IMG/VR virus record: IMGVR_UViG_3300036846_001083
Span: 1 to 25,264 of that record
Source of the DNA: a virus
Reading direction: 5' to 3' (one strand)
DNA: 25,264 bases
Position 1 is the stretch's first letter; each line of letters starts with the position of its first letter. A model generated the notes under the pieces. It had not been told where the DNA came from. It worked only from the letters and a program-made list of their open reading frames with translations, and searched no databases. Below, piece by piece: positions 3,522-17,300 of the stretch. The translations under genes and the position numbers were made by a program.

Positions 3522-3684
3522 TGTCCCCGTTTTCCTGCCCGGGTTTGTTCCGTCCGCCTGCCCCCTAAATGCCTGATTTAAAGGGTTTGGACTCCGATTC
3601 TACAGAATGAGATACCACCCCGCCCGGACCCGCCCCCGCGCCCCGCTTGCCCCCCTGTTCCGCCCGCCGCCCCGCCTCTAGTCC

Positions 3685-3696
3685 ACCTCCGGAGGT
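3685..3696. promoter_or_regulatory. Perfect 12-bp palindrome
   Basis: ACCTCCGGAGGT reads identically on both strands. It sits in the divergent non-coding region and contains no obvious start downstream within ribosome-site distance, so an operator is a better guess than a ribosome site. Confidence 0.25.
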
Positions 3697-3964
3697 TGTC
3701 CGGGGTGCCGCACCGCGCCATCAGCATCAACATCTTTCCCCCCTCTCTTCTCTCCAATCCCCCACCCCCGAGGCGCAGCTTATGAAAAAAATTTGGCCTC
3801 CCAAAAATGGAAAAAAATTCCAGCTAAACTCCACACCCAATCCTCCCTGAATTTAATCTCGCTCATTCCAGAATGGTTATAAATATGCGGCCTTGGAAAA
3901 GTATGGAATTCCGATGAAAATAAACCACTTGCATAAGTAATAGCGATGGTGTAGATGGTGATAG

Positions 3965-4174
3965 ATGATGGAGAAACAGATCGAAGCGGCACTGGCGCGG
4001 CGGCTGCAAACCATGAGCCTGATAGACAGAGTACAGGTTCTATTGTGGTTATGGAGCGAACAACCGCCCGCCGCCGAGGTGGCTCAATGGTTAGGACTGG
4101 AGAGTCTGCCGCCCAAAAAGCCGGTGACGGCGGAGAATGGACGGCGGGAAGGGATAAGGCTGGTGCGGCGATGA
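3965..4174 (+). CDS. Small hypothetical phage protein
   Basis: A 69-residue protein starting MMEKQIEAALARRLQT, with an amphipathic helical first half (LIDRVQVLLWLW) and a basic C-terminus. ATG codons at 3965 and 3968 are both possible; the ribosome site is weak. Its TGA overlaps the ATG of the following zinc-ribbon gene, indicating a coupled pair at the left end of the plus-strand gene block. The segment PPAAEVAQWLGLESLPPKKP could be part of a small helix-turn-helix, but this is not firm. Confidence 0.5.
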   Translation: MMEKQIEAALARRLQTMSLIDRVQVLLWLWSEQPPAAEVAQWLGLESLPPKKPVTAENGRREGIRLVRR

Positions 4175-4783: not shown

Positions 4784-5033
4784 GGTGGATATGGAGCGCC
4801 TGCGGGAGATCGCGGCGGGGCGGAATCTGGAGTTGGCCGAACCGCCGCCCAAGAAGCCGCCGTCCAGCGCCGCTCCGCTAAACCAGTTTATGGATGAGGA
4901 TGGCGGCGGGACCAAAGTGGAGATGTGCGACCACCGGGAGTTCGACGACCAGACCGGGGAGTTCATCCACTGCGGCCTGCCTAAGCATGGGCCGAAGGTA
5001 AGCCACGGGAACGAGTGGAGGGAGTCGGCCTGA
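4629..5033 (+). CDS. Zinc-ribbon protein next to the repeat array
   Basis: A 134-residue protein. Cysteines C11/C14 and C29/C34 (VCDRCGWKW...RCPSRKC) form an N-terminal zinc ribbon. A linker rich in Pro and acidic residues follows, and the C-terminus has a second Cys/His cluster (MCDHREF...HCGLPKHG). The ATG at 4629 follows GGGGAAGG; a TTG at 4614 in frame is the alternative, with a stop just before it. Its TGA lies 12 nt before the first recognisable unit of the 18-nt repeat array, so the array probably sits on the same transcript. Confidence 0.6.
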   Translation: MGEGLEPVWVCDRCGWKWLKTAGPKPERCPSRKCRSRQWDNATSMDGPGEGEVDMERLREIAAGRNLELAEPPPKKPPSSAAPLNQFMDEDGGGTKVEMCDHREFDDQTGEFIHCGLPKHGPKVSHGNEWRESA

Positions 5034-5045
5034 ACCAAAGTAAGA

Positions 5046-5912
5046 GACAGCGCCCATGGGATTGCGAGTGAGCCATGACATCGGAGAGCACCAAGATGTG
5101 AGAGCGAGCCGAGAGAATCGAGAGTGCCCATAGCTGTGAGCGAGCCGTACCGCCTGAGAGCGCCAGATCGAGAGAGCGAGCCAGAGTAAACGCGAGCACC
5201 ACACAGAAAGAGCGAGCCAAAAGTAGGGAGTGTTGCCAAGGATACGGAGCGAAGCCCGCTGGAGCGAGAGTACCTAAGTCACGGAGCGAACCGGGCCAGA
5301 AGAGAGCACCATTGATCGGAAGTGAACCATAAACCATGCGAGCACCACGATAACTGCGTGAGCCAGCATAGTGGAGAGCGCCACAGTAGCGGAGCAAACC
5401 AGACGGGATGAGGGCACCAAACAAGGGGAGTGGAGCCAATGCAAGTGAGAGTGCCGGAAAGGATGAGCGAGCCGATGACAGAGAGAGCACCAGAACGATT
5501 GAGCGAGCCGCCTTAGCAGAGAGTACCCAACCGAGGGAGCGAACCACTAGCCTCTGAGAGTGCCATACAAGGGGAGTGAGCCAGCGGAAACTGCGGGCAC
5601 CTAAGCGGAAGAGCGAACCATGAGCCAGCGAGAGCGCCCAAGTGGTCGAGTGAGCCGGACATGACGAGAGTACCTGTGAGCAGGAGCGAGTCAGGTTCCG
5701 CGAGAGCACCAAGCCAAAGGAACGAACCGGACATGATAAGAGCGCCAGATCGAGGGAGTGAGCCGCGCAACAAGAAAGCGCCAAGAAAGGGGAGTGAGCC
5801 AGTCCACCAGAGAGCACCATGTTGTCGGAGCGAGCCATGCAGGAAGTGAGCGCCACTGCAAGGGAGTAAACCCAATCCAGCGGAGAGCACCAAGCGAATG
5901 GAGGGACACACC
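5046..5912 (+). repeat. TIGR-like array 1: alternating 9-nt repeats with 9-nt spacers
   Basis: About 46 clear units plus a degenerate one at each end. Two repeat types alternate without exception: E = GAGAGCRCC and L = GAGYGARCC, each followed by about 9 variable nucleotides. Starts run 5066, 5084, 5102, 5120, 5138 and so on to 5883; the step is 18 nt, with occasional 19. The E+L double unit is therefore 36 nt, the reported size of TIGR guide RNAs, which carry two short spacers between alternating repeats. Spacers are mostly unique, with a few repeats (5164-5172 resembles 5746-5754; 5655-5664 equals 5727-5736). The last degenerate unit (5901) merges with the ribosome site of the next gene. 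Orientation is given as that of the flanking genes; the transcribed strand is not proven. Ordinary CRISPR is excluded by the very short repeats and spacers. Confidence 0.85.
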
Positions 5913-6800
5913 ATGAACGACCTGTTGGAAGCCACCACCGCTCCTGAACCCCTGAAGCGGCTGACCAAGGATTTACTGAAGGCCGCGACCACCCTGTCCG
6001 TCGATGAGGCGCGGTTTCTGGTGGACGCCTACTACATGCTGCAGCGCAACCGCATCACCGCCAATAATCAAATCAGGACATTGGAGGTAAACGAAGAACC
6101 ACACACCGTGCTCGAATGGCTGAGCGCCCAGAACCAGATGCTGGAAGGACAGTTGAGGAACGCGCTGGACAAATGGTCGAGCGCCAACCCGGTGGGGGAG
6201 TGGGCCAAATCCATCTGCGGCATCGGCCCCGTCATCGCCTCCGGCCTGCTGGCCCACATCGACATCACCCGCACCCCCACCGTGGGGCACATCTGGGCGT
6301 TCGCGGGGCTGAGTCCGTCGATCCAGTGGAAGAAGGGCGAGAAGCGCCCCTACAACGCCACCCTCAAGACCCTGTGCGCCTTCAAGCTGGGGGAGAGCTT
6401 CGTGAAGACGCAGAGCAACGACGAGGACATCTATGGCCGCGTCTACGTCCGGCGCAAGGCGGTTGAGATCGAGCACAACGAGGCGCTGGCCTTCAAGGAG
6501 ATCGCTGCCGAGCGGCTCAAGACCGTGGGCAAGGGCACCGAAGCCTACAAAGCCTACGCCGTAGGCAAGCTGCCTCCGGCCCACATCCACGCCCGGGCGC
6601 GGCGCTACGCCGTAAAACTGTTTTTAGCCCATTACCACGCCGTGGCTTACTTTGTTGAGTACCGGATCATGCCCCCCTTCCCCTACATGTTCAGCCACAT
6701 GGAAGGGCACGTGGATTTCATCGCTCCACCGCATGCCGCCCTCCTTCCGGGTTTCCCTGCAGCGCTGGAACGCTATAAGCAGGCGCTGCGTGAGAGGTGA
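5913..6800 (+). CDS. Tas-like Nop-domain protein (IS110 Transposase_20-like), predicted guide-RNA binding
   Basis: A 295-residue protein. Residues about 97-170 (WAKSICGIGPVIASGLLAHI, then WAFAGLSP and the basic segment WKKGEKRPYNATLKTL) match the Transposase_20 region of IS110/IS116/IS902 transposases, a helix-hairpin-helix-like fold. The N-terminal 95 residues are helical and lack the DEDD RuvC-like catalytic domain an IS110 transposase needs, so it is unlikely to be a transposase. Tas proteins of TIGR systems carry a Nop-like RNA-binding domain related to box C/D Nop proteins and to IS110; the flanking 36-nt arrays make this the best call. No RuvC or HNH domain is fused, so this would be a nuclease-less type. 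The start at 5913 has GGAGGG 7 nt upstream, formed by the array's last unit; an ATG at 5898 is the alternative. The HNH gene follows after 4 nt. Confidence 0.8.
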   Translation: MNDLLEATTAPEPLKRLTKDLLKAATTLSVDEARFLVDAYYMLQRNRITANNQIRTLEVNEEPHTVLEWLSAQNQMLEGQLRNALDKWSSANPVGEWAKSICGIGPVIASGLLAHIDITRTPTVGHIWAFAGLSPSIQWKKGEKRPYNATLKTLCAFKLGESFVKTQSNDEDIYGRVYVRRKAVEIEHNEALAFKEIAAERLKTVGKGTEAYKAYAVGKLPPAHIHARARRYAVKLFLAHYHAVAYFVEYRIMPPFPYMFSHMEGHVDFIAPPHAALLPGFPAALERYKQALRER

Positions 6801-6804
6801 GGTG

Positions 6805-7407
6805 ATGAGAACCCTCTCTGAAAAAAGAAAGATAGCCGCTGCGAGAGCTATGGCTCAACGAAATGTACCGGCGTCAAGGTGCGCCGATTGCGGGAAGGTG
6901 AGTGGAAGACTCCACCGACATCACAGTAATTACGATGAACCACTAAGTGTGGTGGTGTTGTGTCCTTCATGTCACCGTAAAAGAGATCAATTACTAGGGC
7001 TACAGAGAGTCGCGAGAAAGATCACCCCCCGGACCTGCGCGGTTTGCGGTAAGGAGTTTGTACCTGACCGCAGAAAAGTTGGCGTGATATGCGGCTCTGA
7101 TTCGTGCAGGTCTACCTACGGACGAATATCGAGTGCAAAGTGGTGGCAAGGGAGAATGAGGAAGAACAAAATTAAATCGTGTGCCTTCTGTGGTAAGGAG
7201 TTCACGGCTAAGTATCCAACTGTCAGGACTTGTTCCCAATGGTGCGCCAAAAAGCTAATGTGGAACTTTCGCCATTCCATGGCGAAACTTTGCGCCGCTC
7301 TACCCTGTGCGGATTTAATTCAGAGGCTGGCGGCGGCGGTGCAGGCGGAACTGCACCGACGGGGACCGGAAACCAAACCAACTGAGAGCACCGGGGACGA
7401 TGAGTAA
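6805..7407 (+). CDS. HNH-type zinc protein, candidate partner nuclease of the Tas-like protein
   Basis: A 200-residue protein starting MRTLSEKRKIAAARA, with an AGAGG ribosome site, 4 nt after the upstream stop. Residues 26-60 hold an HNH-like unit: C26-x2-C29, H37/H39/H40, N42 and the zinc pair C53-x2-C56 with H57, in the common phage form HRHHSNYDEPLSVVVLCPSC. Two further related zinc motifs follow (CAVCGKEF from C78 and CAFCGKEF further on, each closed by a later Cys pair). It could be the DNA-cutting partner of the Nop-domain protein or a free-standing homing-type HNH gene. The coding sequence looks more AT-rich and differently composed than its neighbour, which hints at separate acquisition. 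Its last codons and stop are built from the first two units of array 2. Confidence 0.7.
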   Translation: MRTLSEKRKIAAARAMAQRNVPASRCADCGKVSGRLHRHHSNYDEPLSVVVLCPSCHRKRDQLLGLQRVARKITPRTCAVCGKEFVPDRRKVGVICGSDSCRSTYGRISSAKWWQGRMRKNKIKSCAFCGKEFTAKYPTVRTCSQWCAKKLMWNFRHSMAKLCAALPCADLIQRLAAAVQAELHRRGPETKPTESTGDDE

Positions 7408-7772
7408 ACCATTTCAGAAGAGAGCACCACAGAGAAGGAGTGAACCAACGAACACGAGTGCGCCATGGGTAATGAGTGAACCACACCAAAGGAGAGCACC
7501 TTGGAACAAAGAGTGAACCATCTTGTCGGAGAGCACCACACCTGAAGAGTGAGCCAATCCAGCGGAAAGCGCCAAATTAGAGGAGCGAACCACAATCAAA
7601 GAGAGCGCCATGGGATGAGAGCGAGCCAAACTCCTTGCGAGCGCCATGAGTCAGAAGCGAACCAAGGTGAGTGAGTGCGCCAGTGTACCAGAGTGAGCCA
7701 AAGCATAGGAGAGCACCAATATATGAGAGTGAACCATCGCGGGTGAGAGCGCCAAGGTCTACGAGTGGAACC
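7384..7772 (+). repeat. TIGR-like array 2
   Basis: Twenty-two units with strict E/L alternation, starting 7384, 7402, 7420, 7438, 7456 and ending with a unit at 7763; the step is 18 nt except one 19 (7492 to 7511). The consensus is the same as in array 1 (E GAGAGCRCC, L GAGYGARCC), giving 11 double units of 36 nt. The first E unit lies inside the HNH coding sequence and the second (GAGTAAACC) supplies its TAA. The 12-nt stretch CCAATCCAGCGG at 7554-7565 also occurs in array 1 (5872-5883), so at least one spacer is shared. Both arrays begin with E and end with L. Confidence 0.85.
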
Positions 7773-7804
7773 AAATTATCTGCGTGGGGAGAAATTATTT
7801 TCCC

Positions 7805-7826
7805 CCGCCGGAAAACTTTTCGGCGG
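7805..7826. other. Stem-loop just after array 2
   Basis: CCGCCG (7805-7810) pairs with CGGCGG (7821-7826), extended inside by AAAA/TTTT across a single bulged G. It lies 30 nt beyond the last array unit. No T-run follows on the plus strand, so if it ends array transcription or protects a 3' end, it is not a classical intrinsic terminator. Confidence 0.35.
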
Positions 7827-7916
7827 CGTATCCCAGCTTGATGAAAAGGCAAAGAGTATAGCAGCGGAGGGCGCAGCTTTAGGATAGCCGCCCGGTTCTG
7901 TTCTGTGGAAAAGCGG

Positions 7917-14309: not shown

Positions 14310-14398
14310 TTTAATCCACAGCGAGACGCATACTCCCCGCGCAGGCGGGATCAAGTCATGGCTCCGGCTACTCCGCCGGGGCCATTTTCATTTTGGCC
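14301..14398 (+). ncRNA. Two-hairpin structured element, copy 1
   Basis: After GGCTTAGTTT comes ACTCCCC, then hairpin 1 (CCCGC 14336-14340 with GCGGG 14345-14349, 4-nt loop) and hairpin 2 (GGCTCCGGC 14360-14368 with GCCGGGGCC 14375-14383), then ATTTTCATTTT. The order and spacing match copy 2 at 20345-20445, and differences inside the stems are compensatory. The final hairpin plus T-rich stretch resembles an intrinsic terminator, so a small RNA, an attenuating leader or an antitermination site are all possible. It argues that the terminase starts after it. Confidence 0.6.
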
Positions 14399-14399
14399 T

Positions 14400-17300
14400 A
14401 TGTATTCCGAAGCCACCATTGAGCGCAATCTCGAAGAGTTTGAAGCCCGCGAGGGCTGGTTCCCGCGCTACCACACCTATGACGAGGTGCGGGAGTTTAC
14501 CGCCTACATCAACGGGCTGCTCAAGACCGAATCGAACACCAAGTCCAGCTACTACACCGTAGTGAAGGAACTCAGCGAAAAGCGGCAGAAAGAGATCACC
14601 CGCTGGGTCCTGAACGAGCAGGCGCTGTGCAATCCGCCAGAAGCTCCGATATGGATGGCCGATTTTACTTTCAAGCCGATTGGCGATATTCAGCCCGGAG
14701 ACAGAATCATCGGTTGGCAGCGAAGCGTTAAAAAAGCGAACCGCAAGTCCACCAAGTCTCCGAAAAATTTAGAGCGGCTGGTTAGAACTACGGTGGTCGC
14801 TGTCGGGAGACGAAAATCGCCAATAGTCAGAGTGACGATGGAATCGGGGCGGGTGATCAGGTGTACGCCAGATCACCTGTGGTCGTGCGGCGCAACATAT
14901 CGCGGTGAGTGCCCTTGGCAGTCCGCGAAGATAGGGCGGCTTCTGCGACGGGTCGTGGATGTTTACAGCAACGAGCCTGCGGACATTAGGCTCGCCGGTT
15001 GGCTGGGTGGAATCTATGACGGTGAGGGGCACAAGGGATCGATTCATCAATCCCCATTTCATAACGCTGACGTTTGTGAGGCGATTGAGTCAACCCTGTC
15101 TGCGCTTAATTTCAGCTTCTCAGTTTACCGCGCAGCCAACAAGACGGAGAAAGGTAAAGACCGACGATCTAATTGCTACCAAATCCTCGGCGGCGTAAGT
15201 GTGCTGGCTCGATTCGCGGCGTGGTGTAAGCCCTGCCGCAATGACGGTCTGGACGCTCGCATCCTGCGGACAATGCGAGCCTCTACCGACAGAATTATCA
15301 ACGTCGAGCCGGATGGAGAGGGAGAGGTCGTCTCCATGCAGACCGAAACCGGCAATTACATTGTCTGGGGATATGCCAGTAAAAACTGCGGGCTGGACTC
15401 CGGCTATTGGGAGCGGAATTACGCATGGGTGTGCGACGAGAAGGGGCAGATATTTAAATTCAAGAACCGCAAATCACAGGAAGTATTCGATAGCATCATC
15501 GCCGAGTTTGACGAAAAGGGCGTGTCCATCGAACTGCTGATCCTGAAAGCGCGGCAGGTGGGGATTTCCACCAAGACGGCCCTCAAGTTCATTCATCGCC
15601 TGATGTTTATTCCCCACACGCAGGCGGTGATGGCCTCGGTGCAGAAGGACAAGTCGGAGTTGATCGGGCGCATTCTGGACACCGCCTATAACCGCTGTCC
15701 GTGGTGGCTGGTGCCCAACCGCATGCCGAGGCGCTCCTTCGATAACGGGTCGATTCTTTCCATTCAGTCGGGCATGCAGGCCACCGGACTGGCGCAAGGA
15801 TGGACGCCCACCTCAATCCACATCTCCGAACTGGCCGATATCCCCAACCCCAAGGTGACCATTGAAGAGGGCCTGTTCCGCGCCGCTCACTCCTCGCGGA
15901 ATTTATTCATGGTGCTCGAAGGCACCGGCGGCGGCAATACCGGATGGCTGGCGGATACATGGCGAGCCGCCAAGGAGGACTGGCCCAAAGGGCTGGCGCG
16001 GTTGTTCCCCATGTTCATCCCGTGGGCCATGTGTCCGGACATCTATCCGGAGCCGGACTGGCTGCTGAAGTTTCCTTTGCCGGGCGGGTTCCAGCCCCAC
16101 GAGATGACCCGCAAGCATGTCATCAAATGTGAGTCCTATATCCGCAACACCCCCTATCTGTCCAGAATCGCGGGCCGGGACTGGCGCATGCCCATGGAGC
16201 AGAAGTGGTTCTGGCAGTTCAACTACGACGAAGCCTGCAAGAAGCACACCCAGCGGACGTGGGCGGCGCAGATGCCCGCTGACGACCACGAAGCCCTAAC
16301 CGGCATTCACGACAGCGTGTTCGACCCCGAGGTGCTGATGGAGGTCGAGGACCGCATCTACGAAATCGCCCCGCTCGCCGACCAGCGGCAGCGCAAACAG
16401 CCGATGCAGATATACGCCATTACCGGTCACGACGTGGATGAGGTGTTTCATCCGCCCGACGCCCGCATCGACTGGGACAAGCCCTGCGTGAAGGTGGAGT
16501 GGGACTCCTATCGCGGCCAGCACTTCGACTGGAACATGATCCCGCTGCTCGCCGTGGACGAGGAAAAAGAGCGCGACACCTTGGATTACCTGCTGGTGTA
16601 TGAATGGCCGAAACACGGTTGCCAGTATAGCTGCGGCGTCGATACGGCGGACGGTTTAGGCAAAGAGGACGAGGAAAGAAGCTGCCTGTCGGTTACCAAA
16701 AACAGGTTTCACGGAGAATGCGACCAGCAGGTCGCGGAGCTTACTTCGAACCGCATCAACTCCGCCCAGATCGTGGCCTTCGCGGCCTGCGTGGGCGCGC
16801 TCTACGGCCCATGCTGCCCCGACAGCCGGGGGCTGAAATACTGCATCGAGCAGATTCAGGGGCCGGGCGACACCTGCCAGCACCAGTTGAAGATGATGGG
16901 CTTCTTTAATCACCACATCCCCCGCCGCTACGACTCGAAAAAGATTAAGGACGACTCCAGCCGCAAGGAAGGCTGGTACTCCAATACATGGTCGGTGCCG
17001 ATCATGATGACCCGCTTTACGGAGGCCGTCAACGGCGGCTGGTACGAGCCCAGATCGCGCTGGCTGATCGAGGAACTGCGCACCTTGGAGCGCCATGAGA
17101 CAGCGGGCAAGTCGAAGATGGAGCACCAGACCGGCAAGTTCGACGACCGGGTGAGAGCCGCCGCCACCTCCTATTTCACCGTCCACGACATGGACGTGCT
17201 GACGGAACGGGCGCAGAAGCGCTACGCCCAGCCGGTGAAGAAGCCGTCGTATTCGAAGAATTTGTGCCGCGCCACGCAGGTGTCAGTGGGAGGCTGGTGA
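14400..17300 (+). CDS. terL: Terminase large subunit (intein-containing)
   Basis: A 966-residue precursor; removing the 253-residue intein leaves about 713 residues. The ATPase Walker A-like motif is ARQVGISTK (about residue 384, or 131 after splicing), the Walker B-like motif is SIHISELADIP, and MVLEGTGGGNTGW is the coupling segment. The C-terminal RNase H-like nuclease is shown by YSCGVDTADG, an acidic residue in YCIEQIQGPG and FDDRVRAA. It cuts concatemeric phage DNA and drives it through the portal. The ATG at 14400 (MYSEATIERNLEEFEAREGW) was chosen because the in-frame ATG at 14358 lies in the structured element and would add a Pro-rich segment coded by a hairpin; no clear ribosome site precedes either. 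Confidence 0.9.
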   Translation: MYSEATIERNLEEFEAREGWFPRYHTYDEVREFTAYINGLLKTESNTKSSYYTVVKELSEKRQKEITRWVLNEQALCNPPEAPIWMADFTFKPIGDIQPGDRIIGWQRSVKKANRKSTKSPKNLERLVRTTVVAVGRRKSPIVRVTMESGRVIRCTPDHLWSCGATYRGECPWQSAKIGRLLRRVVDVYSNEPADIRLAGWLGGIYDGEGHKGSIHQSPFHNADVCEAIESTLSALNFSFSVYRAANKTEKGKDRRSNCYQILGGVSVLARFAAWCKPCRNDGLDARILRTMRASTDRIINVEPDGEGEVVSMQTETGNYIVWGYASKNCGLDSGYWERNYAWVCDEKGQIFKFKNRKSQEVFDSIIAEFDEKGVSIELLILKARQVGISTKTALKFIHRLMFIPHTQAVMASVQKDKSELIGRILDTAYNRCPWWLVPNRMPRRSFDNGSILSIQSGMQATGLAQGWTPTSIHISELADIPNPKVTIEEGLFRAAHSSRNLFMVLEGTGGGNTGWLADTWRAAKEDWPKGLARLFPMFIPWAMCPDIYPEPDWLLKFPLPGGFQPHEMTRKHVIKCESYIRNTPYLSRIAGRDWRMPMEQKWFWQFNYDEACKKHTQRTWAAQMPADDHEALTGIHDSVFDPEVLMEVEDRIYEIAPLADQRQRKQPMQIYAITGHDVDEVFHPPDARIDWDKPCVKVEWDSYRGQHFDWNMIPLLAVDEEKERDTLDYLLVYEWPKHGCQYSCGVDTADGLGKEDEERSCLSVTKNRFHGECDQQVAELTSNRINSAQIVAFAACVGALYGPCCPDSRGLKYCIEQIQGPGDTCQHQLKMMGFFNHHIPRRYDSKKIKDDSSRKEGWYSNTWSVPIMMTRFTEAVNGGWYEPRSRWLIEELRTLERHETAGKSKMEHQTGKFDDRVRAAATSYFTVHDMDVLTERAQKRYAQPVKKPSYSKNLCRATQVSVGGW
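14628..15386 (+). mobile_element. Intein with LAGLIDADG homing endonuclease inside terL
   Basis: A 253-residue in-frame insertion beginning with Cys (CNPPEAPIWM) and ending SKN before a Cys +1. Splicing-domain blocks are visible: block A with IGDIQPGDRIIGW near residues 18-30, block B GRVIRCTPDHLW (74-85) and block F EVVSMQTETGNYIVWGY (about 233-249). A LAGLIDADG-type motif, RLAGWLGGIYDGEG (121-134), marks a homing endonuclease. The residue before the terminal Asn is Lys rather than the usual His. Flanks join as NEQAL-CGLDSGYW, restoring the terminase just upstream of its Walker A. The segment looks more AT-rich than the flanking terminase. Confidence 0.88.

What the first reader, a model, noticed from the sequence alone, without database searches (positions are those of the whole stretch)
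5046..7772. TIGR-Tas-like RNA-guided locus in a phage, hidden behind an IS110 transposase-like gene
Direct observation: two arrays of strictly alternating 9-nt repeats (GAGAGCRCC / GAGYGARCC) with 9-nt variable spacers, 36-nt double period, flank a 295-aa Transposase_20/Nop-like protein with no DEDD domain. Known family: TIGR systems encode about 36-nt dual-spacer guides used by Nop-domain Tas proteins to target DNA. Inference: this is a phage-borne TIGR-Tas locus with roughly 34 potential guides.
Basis: partly seen in the sequence, partly recalled or inferred. Interest (0 to 1): 0.95.

Follow-up and report, generated by a model that had tools for sequence, protein, structure and literature searches.

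The report
Phage TIGR-TasA RNA-guided DNA-binding locus
This phage carries a TIGR-Tas system: a gene mislabelled 'transposase' plus about 34 short guide RNAs that should lead its protein to chosen DNA. It belongs to a family described in 2025, and a cultured relative gives a first candidate for what such systems aim at, namely a rival prophage-like element.

Summary
Two arrays (5028-5912 and 7366-7772) of strictly alternating 9-nt repeats (GAGYGARCC and GAGAGCRCC, mostly 18 nt apart, 33 complete 36-nt units) flank a 295-aa Nop-domain protein. The protein passes NCBI's curated TIGR-Tas model (204.9 bits, cut-off 100) and fails the IS110 model (27.8, cut-off 140). Its predicted fold matches TasH and TasR ahead of IS110. 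It has no nuclease domain, so it is a TasA.

New support from the arrays: one base of each edge repeat covaries with its partner in the neighbouring edge repeat, exactly the two that end up at the ends of one processed 36-nt RNA (p=2.4e-4 in the window; repeated in four relatives).

No target was found in the phage itself or in 2.6 Mb of relatives. In the cultured Acidobacteriaceae bacterium KBS 96, whose prophage carries a relative of this system, two of six guides match one other prophage-like element (one exactly, one with two edge mismatches), roughly 1 in 1000 by chance after counting six lysogens: a lead, not proof.

Two phages about 89% identical share only 35 of about 84 guides. Verdict: a new member of a known kind, with handles on open questions.

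The parts
5028..5912 (+). TIGR array 1: 47 recognisable repeats, edge GAGYGARCC and loop GAGAGCRCC alternating, about 8-9 nt spacers, 36-nt units; degenerate at about 5220-5265; the last edge-like copy (GGAGGGACACACC) doubles as the ribosome-binding site of tas
5913..6800 (+). tasA: 295-aa Nop-domain Tas protein without nuclease domain (annotated 'transposase' in PHROGs, family 4285)
6805..7407 (+). HNH/treble-clef zinc-finger ORF of 200 aa, 4 nt behind the tas stop; its 3' end runs into array 2. Not found in any relative fetched; probably an inserted homing-type endonuclease
   Evidence: (phrog_1271 8.7e-10, phrog_2340 1.6e-6)
7366..7772 (+). TIGR array 2: 23 alternating repeats, about 11 units
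7785..7829 (+). two hairpin-forming stretches directly behind array 2 (GGGGAGAAATTATTTTCCCC and CCGGAAAACTTTTCGG); possible terminator, not called as one by the scan
   Evidence: sequence; scan negative

Best explanation
It is a phage-borne TIGR-TasA locus. The arrays are transcribed with tas (inferred). The precursor is cut in the middle of each GAGYGARCC edge repeat into 36-nt tigRNAs of the form half-edge, spacer A, loop repeat, spacer B, half-edge (supported here by covariation, shown by others for relatives). A TasA dimer binds each tigRNA (family knowledge, fold shown here). Spacer A pairs with one DNA strand and spacer B with the other at an adjacent 16-18-bp site (family knowledge). 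TasA has no nuclease, so it should bind and bend the site rather than cut it, blocking transcription or replication (inferred). The most likely use is against competing mobile elements in the same host (inferred, supported by one candidate target in a relative).
For: Curated model, PDB sequence hits and fold all say Tas rather than IS110. Dual-repeat 36-nt arrays are present next to tas in 81 of 85 further related loci, some of them duplicate records, and beside the type TasH of Salicola phage CGphi29. Edge-repeat bases covary only in the combination brought together in one mature tigRNA: OR 30, p=2.4e-4 in the window, and p=6.5e-5, 1.3e-5, 2e-6 and 4.9e-6 in four relatives, while within-repeat pairing and loop repeats show nothing in these five genomes. 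KBS 96 guides 2 and 5 match one other integrated element, whose rep and capsid genes are homologous to those of the TIGR-bearing prophage.
Against: No RNA or binding data. No target found for the window's own guides in its genome or in up to 2.6 Mb of related phage DNA. Own-genome target tests in five other lysogens were negative or at control level. No sigma-70 promoter was called in front of the arrays.
Confidence: 0.88

Rival explanations
1. Split nuclease system: the HNH ORF behind tas supplies the cutting activity in trans, so that the pair works like a two-gene TasH.
For: Same strand, 4 nt behind the tas stop, HNH-endonuclease family matches; fused HNH is the TasH solution (PMC12045711).
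Against: The ORF is absent from every relative fetched, where array 2 or another gene follows tas directly; it shows no meaningful similarity to the HNH part of Salicola TasH; it looks like a free-standing homing endonuclease with extra zinc fingers.
Confidence: 0.1
2. IS110-type transposase with array-like bridge RNA repeats, i.e. a mobile element rather than a targeting system.
For: Pfam Transposase_20 hit (25 bits, cut-off 21.3) and the PHROG name 'transposase'.
Against: No DEDD catalytic domain, far below the curated IS110 cut-off, closer to Tas in sequence and fold; arrays of dozens of guides are not bridge RNAs.
Confidence: 0.02
3. The guides regulate the phage's own or host genes (transcription control during infection) instead of attacking rivals.
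For: A nuclease-less RNA-guided binder is suited to repression; arrays are large and some lie far from tas.
Against: No excess of own-genome targets over shuffled pairings. Guides turn over fast between close relatives, which does not fit control of conserved genes. Host unknown, so host targets are untested.
Confidence: 0.2

Closest known systems
TIGR-TasA (Faure et al. 2025, PMC12045711; type example Flavonifractor plautii FpTIGR)
   Same: Solo Nop protein, alternating edge/loop repeats of 9 nt, about 9-nt spacers, 36-nt units, arrays on both sides of tas, phage-borne
   Different: Repeats are purine-rich GAGYGARCC/GAGAGCRCC, with CCA kept but GA in place of the UG box D of TasR; many more guides (about 34 here, 85-86 complete in two sister phages) than the usual 5-15 units; an HNH ORF inserted beside tas
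TIGR-TasH, Salicola phage CGphi29 (PDB 9w04, 21kl)
   Same: Same fold (Z 18.5), 36-nt dual-repeat array with similar repeats (GAAGCGAGCC/AAGACAACC)
   Different: TasH has a fused N-terminal HNH; here only about 26 residues precede the Nop coiled coil
TIGR-TasR (PDB 9mty)
   Same: Best sequence match in PDB (1.3e-15), Z 17.5, same extra edge pair supported by covariation
   Different: TasR has a RuvC nuclease domain, lacking here
IS110/IS621 bridge-RNA recombinases
   Same: Homologous RNA-binding (Nop-like) domain, Z 12.7
   Different: No DEDD domain; IS110 curated cut-off not reached; guide array in place of a bridge RNA

Membership tests
TIGR-Tas | Protein of the Tas Nop-domain family | tested here: met
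   NF052498.1 TIGR_Tas_endo 204.9 bits, cut-off 100; PDB TasR 1.3e-15 and TasH 1.5e-9; Foldseek top ten all Tas
TIGR-Tas | Array of two alternating 8-12-nt repeats with about 9-nt spacers beside the gene | tested here: met
TIGR-Tas | Array starts and ends with truncated edge repeats | tested here: met
   Truncated starts at 5028 and 7366 and an edge-like end at about 5900; clearer in L003 and L128
TIGR-Tas | Rho-independent terminator behind the array | tested here: inconclusive
   Hairpins at 7785-7829 by eye, none called by the scan
TIGR-Tas | Extra edge-repeat base pair supported by covariation | tested here: met
   controls
TIGR-Tas | 36-nt processed tigRNAs bound by the protein | not testable with these tools
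   Needs RNA sequencing
TIGR-Tas | Tandem-spacer pairing with opposite strands of one DNA site | tested here: inconclusive
   No target for the window's guides; one candidate element in KBS 96
TasA subtype | No HNH or RuvC nuclease domain | tested here: met
   Pfam finds only Transposase_20; about 26 residues before the Nop coiled coil in the model and its alignments
TasH subtype | Fused N-terminal HNH nuclease | tested here: not met
   No N-terminal domain; the separate HNH ORF is not similar to the HNH part of Salicola TasH
IS110 transposase | N-terminal DEDD catalytic domain | tested here: not met
   Absent from Pfam results; alignment to IS621 starts only at its residue 125; NF033542 27.8 bits, cut-off 140

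The most novel reading that the evidence does not exclude
Nuclease-less TIGR-TasA systems are RNA-guided silencers with which a prophage or phage holds down homologous rival or satellite elements. In KBS 96 one guide sits exactly on the start of the rival's excisionase/regulator gene and a second on its replication gene. Their guide sets turn over by loss and gain of whole 36-nt units at scattered places, unlike the leader-end growth of CRISPR arrays.
Probability: 0.3. Interest if true: 0.85.

Novelty: new member of a known kind. Interest (0 to 1): 0.5.

Why it matters
TIGR-Tas was described in 2025, and its authors state that natural targets and the way arrays grow are unknown (PMC12045711). 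This lineage offers handles on both. It gives a pair of sister phages with large, half-shared guide sets; a cultured lysogen (KBS 96) with a concrete candidate target element; and a simple sequence test (edge-pair covariation) that marks the guide unit without any RNA data. It also shows that a PHROG family named 'transposase' holds Tas proteins.

Tried and rejected
Own-genome targets: hits with at most 3 mismatches do not exceed shuffled pairings or wrong geometries. Targets in relatives and in the same phage family (0.8-2.6 Mb): small, non-significant excesses only. Palindromic targets (A like B): 48 observed, 41.9 +/- 5.8 expected. Host by provirus capsid search in 297 Acidobacteriota genomes: one distant hit (29% identity), host stays unknown. 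Lysogens other than KBS 96: Halomonas NO4 0/7 exact (one 17/18 hit in a chromosomal gene), G628 0/25, three MAGs 1/22 with 1/22 in the controls, hit in a chromosomal region. Three genus-level hits of G628 guides lie beside a transposase gene and in two ordinary chromosomal genes and look like chance. Eight of the nine Microcystis phage Mvi-JY20 guides against 50,697 phages: one unrelated 17-nt match. KBS guides in 364 kb of capsid-related contigs and in two further KBS 96 capsid-bearing elements: none with at most 2 mismatches at gap 0. Rfam: nothing. PADLOC: nothing.

Full report
What is in the window. The record is a 25,264-base IMG/VR virus contig. At 5028-5912 and 7366-7772 lie arrays of two 9-nt repeats, GAGYGARCC and GAGAGCRCC, strictly alternating with start-to-start steps of 18 nt (60 of 67; the rest 19 or 20). 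That makes 70 recognisable repeats and 33 complete 36-nt units. Letter-shuffled copies of the same DNA never give more than 3 linked repeats in 200 tries; the rest of the + strand gives none and the - strand at most 3. The base after each CC is mostly A, the next 8 are variable. Between the arrays are tas (5913-6800, 295 aa) and an HNH/zinc-finger ORF (6805-7407).

What the protein is. Pfam gives only the C-terminal Transposase_20 domain, and PHROGs a full-length match to family 4285, named 'transposase'. Better-resolved tests point one way. NCBIfam TIGR_Tas_endo scores 204.9 bits (cut-off 100), while the IS110 model scores 27.8 (cut-off 140). In the PDB the best sequences are TasR 9mty (1.3e-15) and TasH (1.5e-9), IS621 only 0.13. 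An AlphaFold2 model from an 11-sequence alignment (mean pLDDT 83) has Tas chains as its ten best Foldseek matches. VIA Z is 18.5 for TasH, 17.5 for TasR and 12.7 for IS621. Alignments to the Tas structures begin at about residue 26, so there is no room for a fused nuclease: this is TasA.

Family-wide linkage. 315 related proteins were found in viral contigs and six in bacterial genomes. Of 85 loci fetched in these two scans (some duplicate records), 81 have the same kind of array beside tas. The Salicola TasH locus, a type locus of the family, and the cultured Microcystis phage Mvi-JY20 also show a 36-nt period.

Which repeat is the edge. Faure et al. (PMC12045711) report an extra pair between the two ends of one tigRNA, each end being half of a different edge repeat. 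I tested this on the DNA alone. In the window, Y of the downstream GAGYGARCC against R of the upstream one gives CG 13, CA 2, TG 3, TA 14 (odds ratio 30, p=2.4e-4). Within one repeat p=1, in the opposite combination p=0.72, and for loop repeats p=0.33. Four relatives repeat the pattern (6.5e-5, 1.3e-5, 2e-6, 4.9e-6). Base pairing between tigRNA ends explains this. So would inheritance of whole units bounded in the middle of the edge repeat. Either way the unit is edge-half, A, loop, B, edge-half.

Array turnover. Two phages of about 121 and 122 kb, with capsids 93% and Tas 68% identical to the window's, are about 89% identical to each other over 103 kb. They have 86 and 85 complete guides and share 35 distinct ones, in the same order, with replaced units scattered along the arrays. 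Each also has an array far from tas (G002 54,152-54,617; G003 69,179-69,641). None of the window's guides is shared with G001 or G002. This is evidence for unit-wise, non-polar turnover. The mechanism stays unknown.

Targets. With the published geometry (A followed by reverse-complement B), the window's guides have no excess of matches in the window or in related phages over re-paired or wrongly oriented controls. In lysogens I searched whole genomes with predicted targets plus positive controls, which were found. In Acidobacteriaceae KBS 96 (TIGR prophage near 0.14 Mb), guide 2 matches 16/16 core bases, 17/18 with outer bases, at 6.330 Mb. The site lies in the first codons of an excisionase/regulator gene of another integrated element with integrase, repressor, replication gene, small terminase, capsid and protease. 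Guide 5 matches the same element's replication gene with two mismatches at the outer end. Background: re-paired guides hit 0.0017 times per guide per genome over 160 genomes (8 hits), so about 0.01 for six guides. Of 700 unrelated guides 2 reach at most 2 mismatches in the element, so about 0.014 for the other five. The product, times six lysogens tested, is about 1e-3; this is my estimate, made after seeing the first hit, and gap 0 was fixed. The same guides find nothing at that level in 364 kb of capsid-related contigs or in two other capsid-bearing KBS 96 elements. The element's rep is 58% identical to that of the TIGR prophage over 124 residues, which the guide does not match (best 5 mismatches). 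Its capsid is 68% identical to the prophage's. That fits competition between related elements. Other lysogens gave no such signal.

The HNH ORF. It is absent from all fetched relatives, unlike TasH's HNH, and its 3' end runs into array 2. I read it as an inserted homing-type gene. A partner role is possible but not favoured.

Conclusion. Membership in TIGR-Tas (TasA) is firm at the level of protein and array; RNA processing and DNA binding are inferred from the family. The finding is a new member of a known kind. The interest lies in the covariation test, the array turnover and the KBS 96 candidate target.

Noticed in passing
window 14358-17300: The large terminase ORF carries an in-frame insert of about 770 bp (about 14631-15401) that is absent from relatives G001-G003 and has intein-like ends (..LC/NPPEAPIW... 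to ...GYASKN/C) and a LAGLIDADG-like stretch (LAGWLGGIYDGEG); probably an intein (for the gap in the alignment).
   Followed up: partly
L248 (Microcystis phage Mvi-JY20, PP438412.1), about 3600-4040: A cultured phage carries an unannotated Tas homologue and a 36-nt dual-repeat array (ATGCGAGCC/ACGAAACCC) ending in a clear terminator: a tractable laboratory system.
   Followed up: partly
L013 (188-kb phage contig): About 200 TIGR repeats in several arrays around a Tas protein with two large inserts.
   Followed up: no
L002/G001 about 48,180 and 50,510: The giant arrays are interrupted by a motif GATACCGGGGCTTTT in both orientations, found only inside the arrays of that phage.
   Followed up: partly
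L215 (KBS 96, 6.325-6.335 Mb): Element with integrase, XRE repressor, excisionase-like genes, replication gene, small terminase, HK97 capsid and protease in about 7 kb; looks like a capsid-forming satellite or a prophage remnant related to the TIGR prophage.
   Followed up: partly
PHROG family 4285: The phage family labelled 'transposase' matches this Tas protein over its whole length (1e-46); annotations based on it hide TIGR systems.
   Followed up: no
window 5028-5912: The last edge-like copy of array 1 provides the ribosome-binding site of tas; in L003 and L128 the first edge copy contains the tas stop codon, so array and gene are tightly interlocked.
   Followed up: no
L128:10882-10934: KBS 96 guide 4 specifies an imperfect palindrome (AGGACATTACTGTGTCCT) like an operator; palindromic guides are not enriched overall.
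   Followed up: yes
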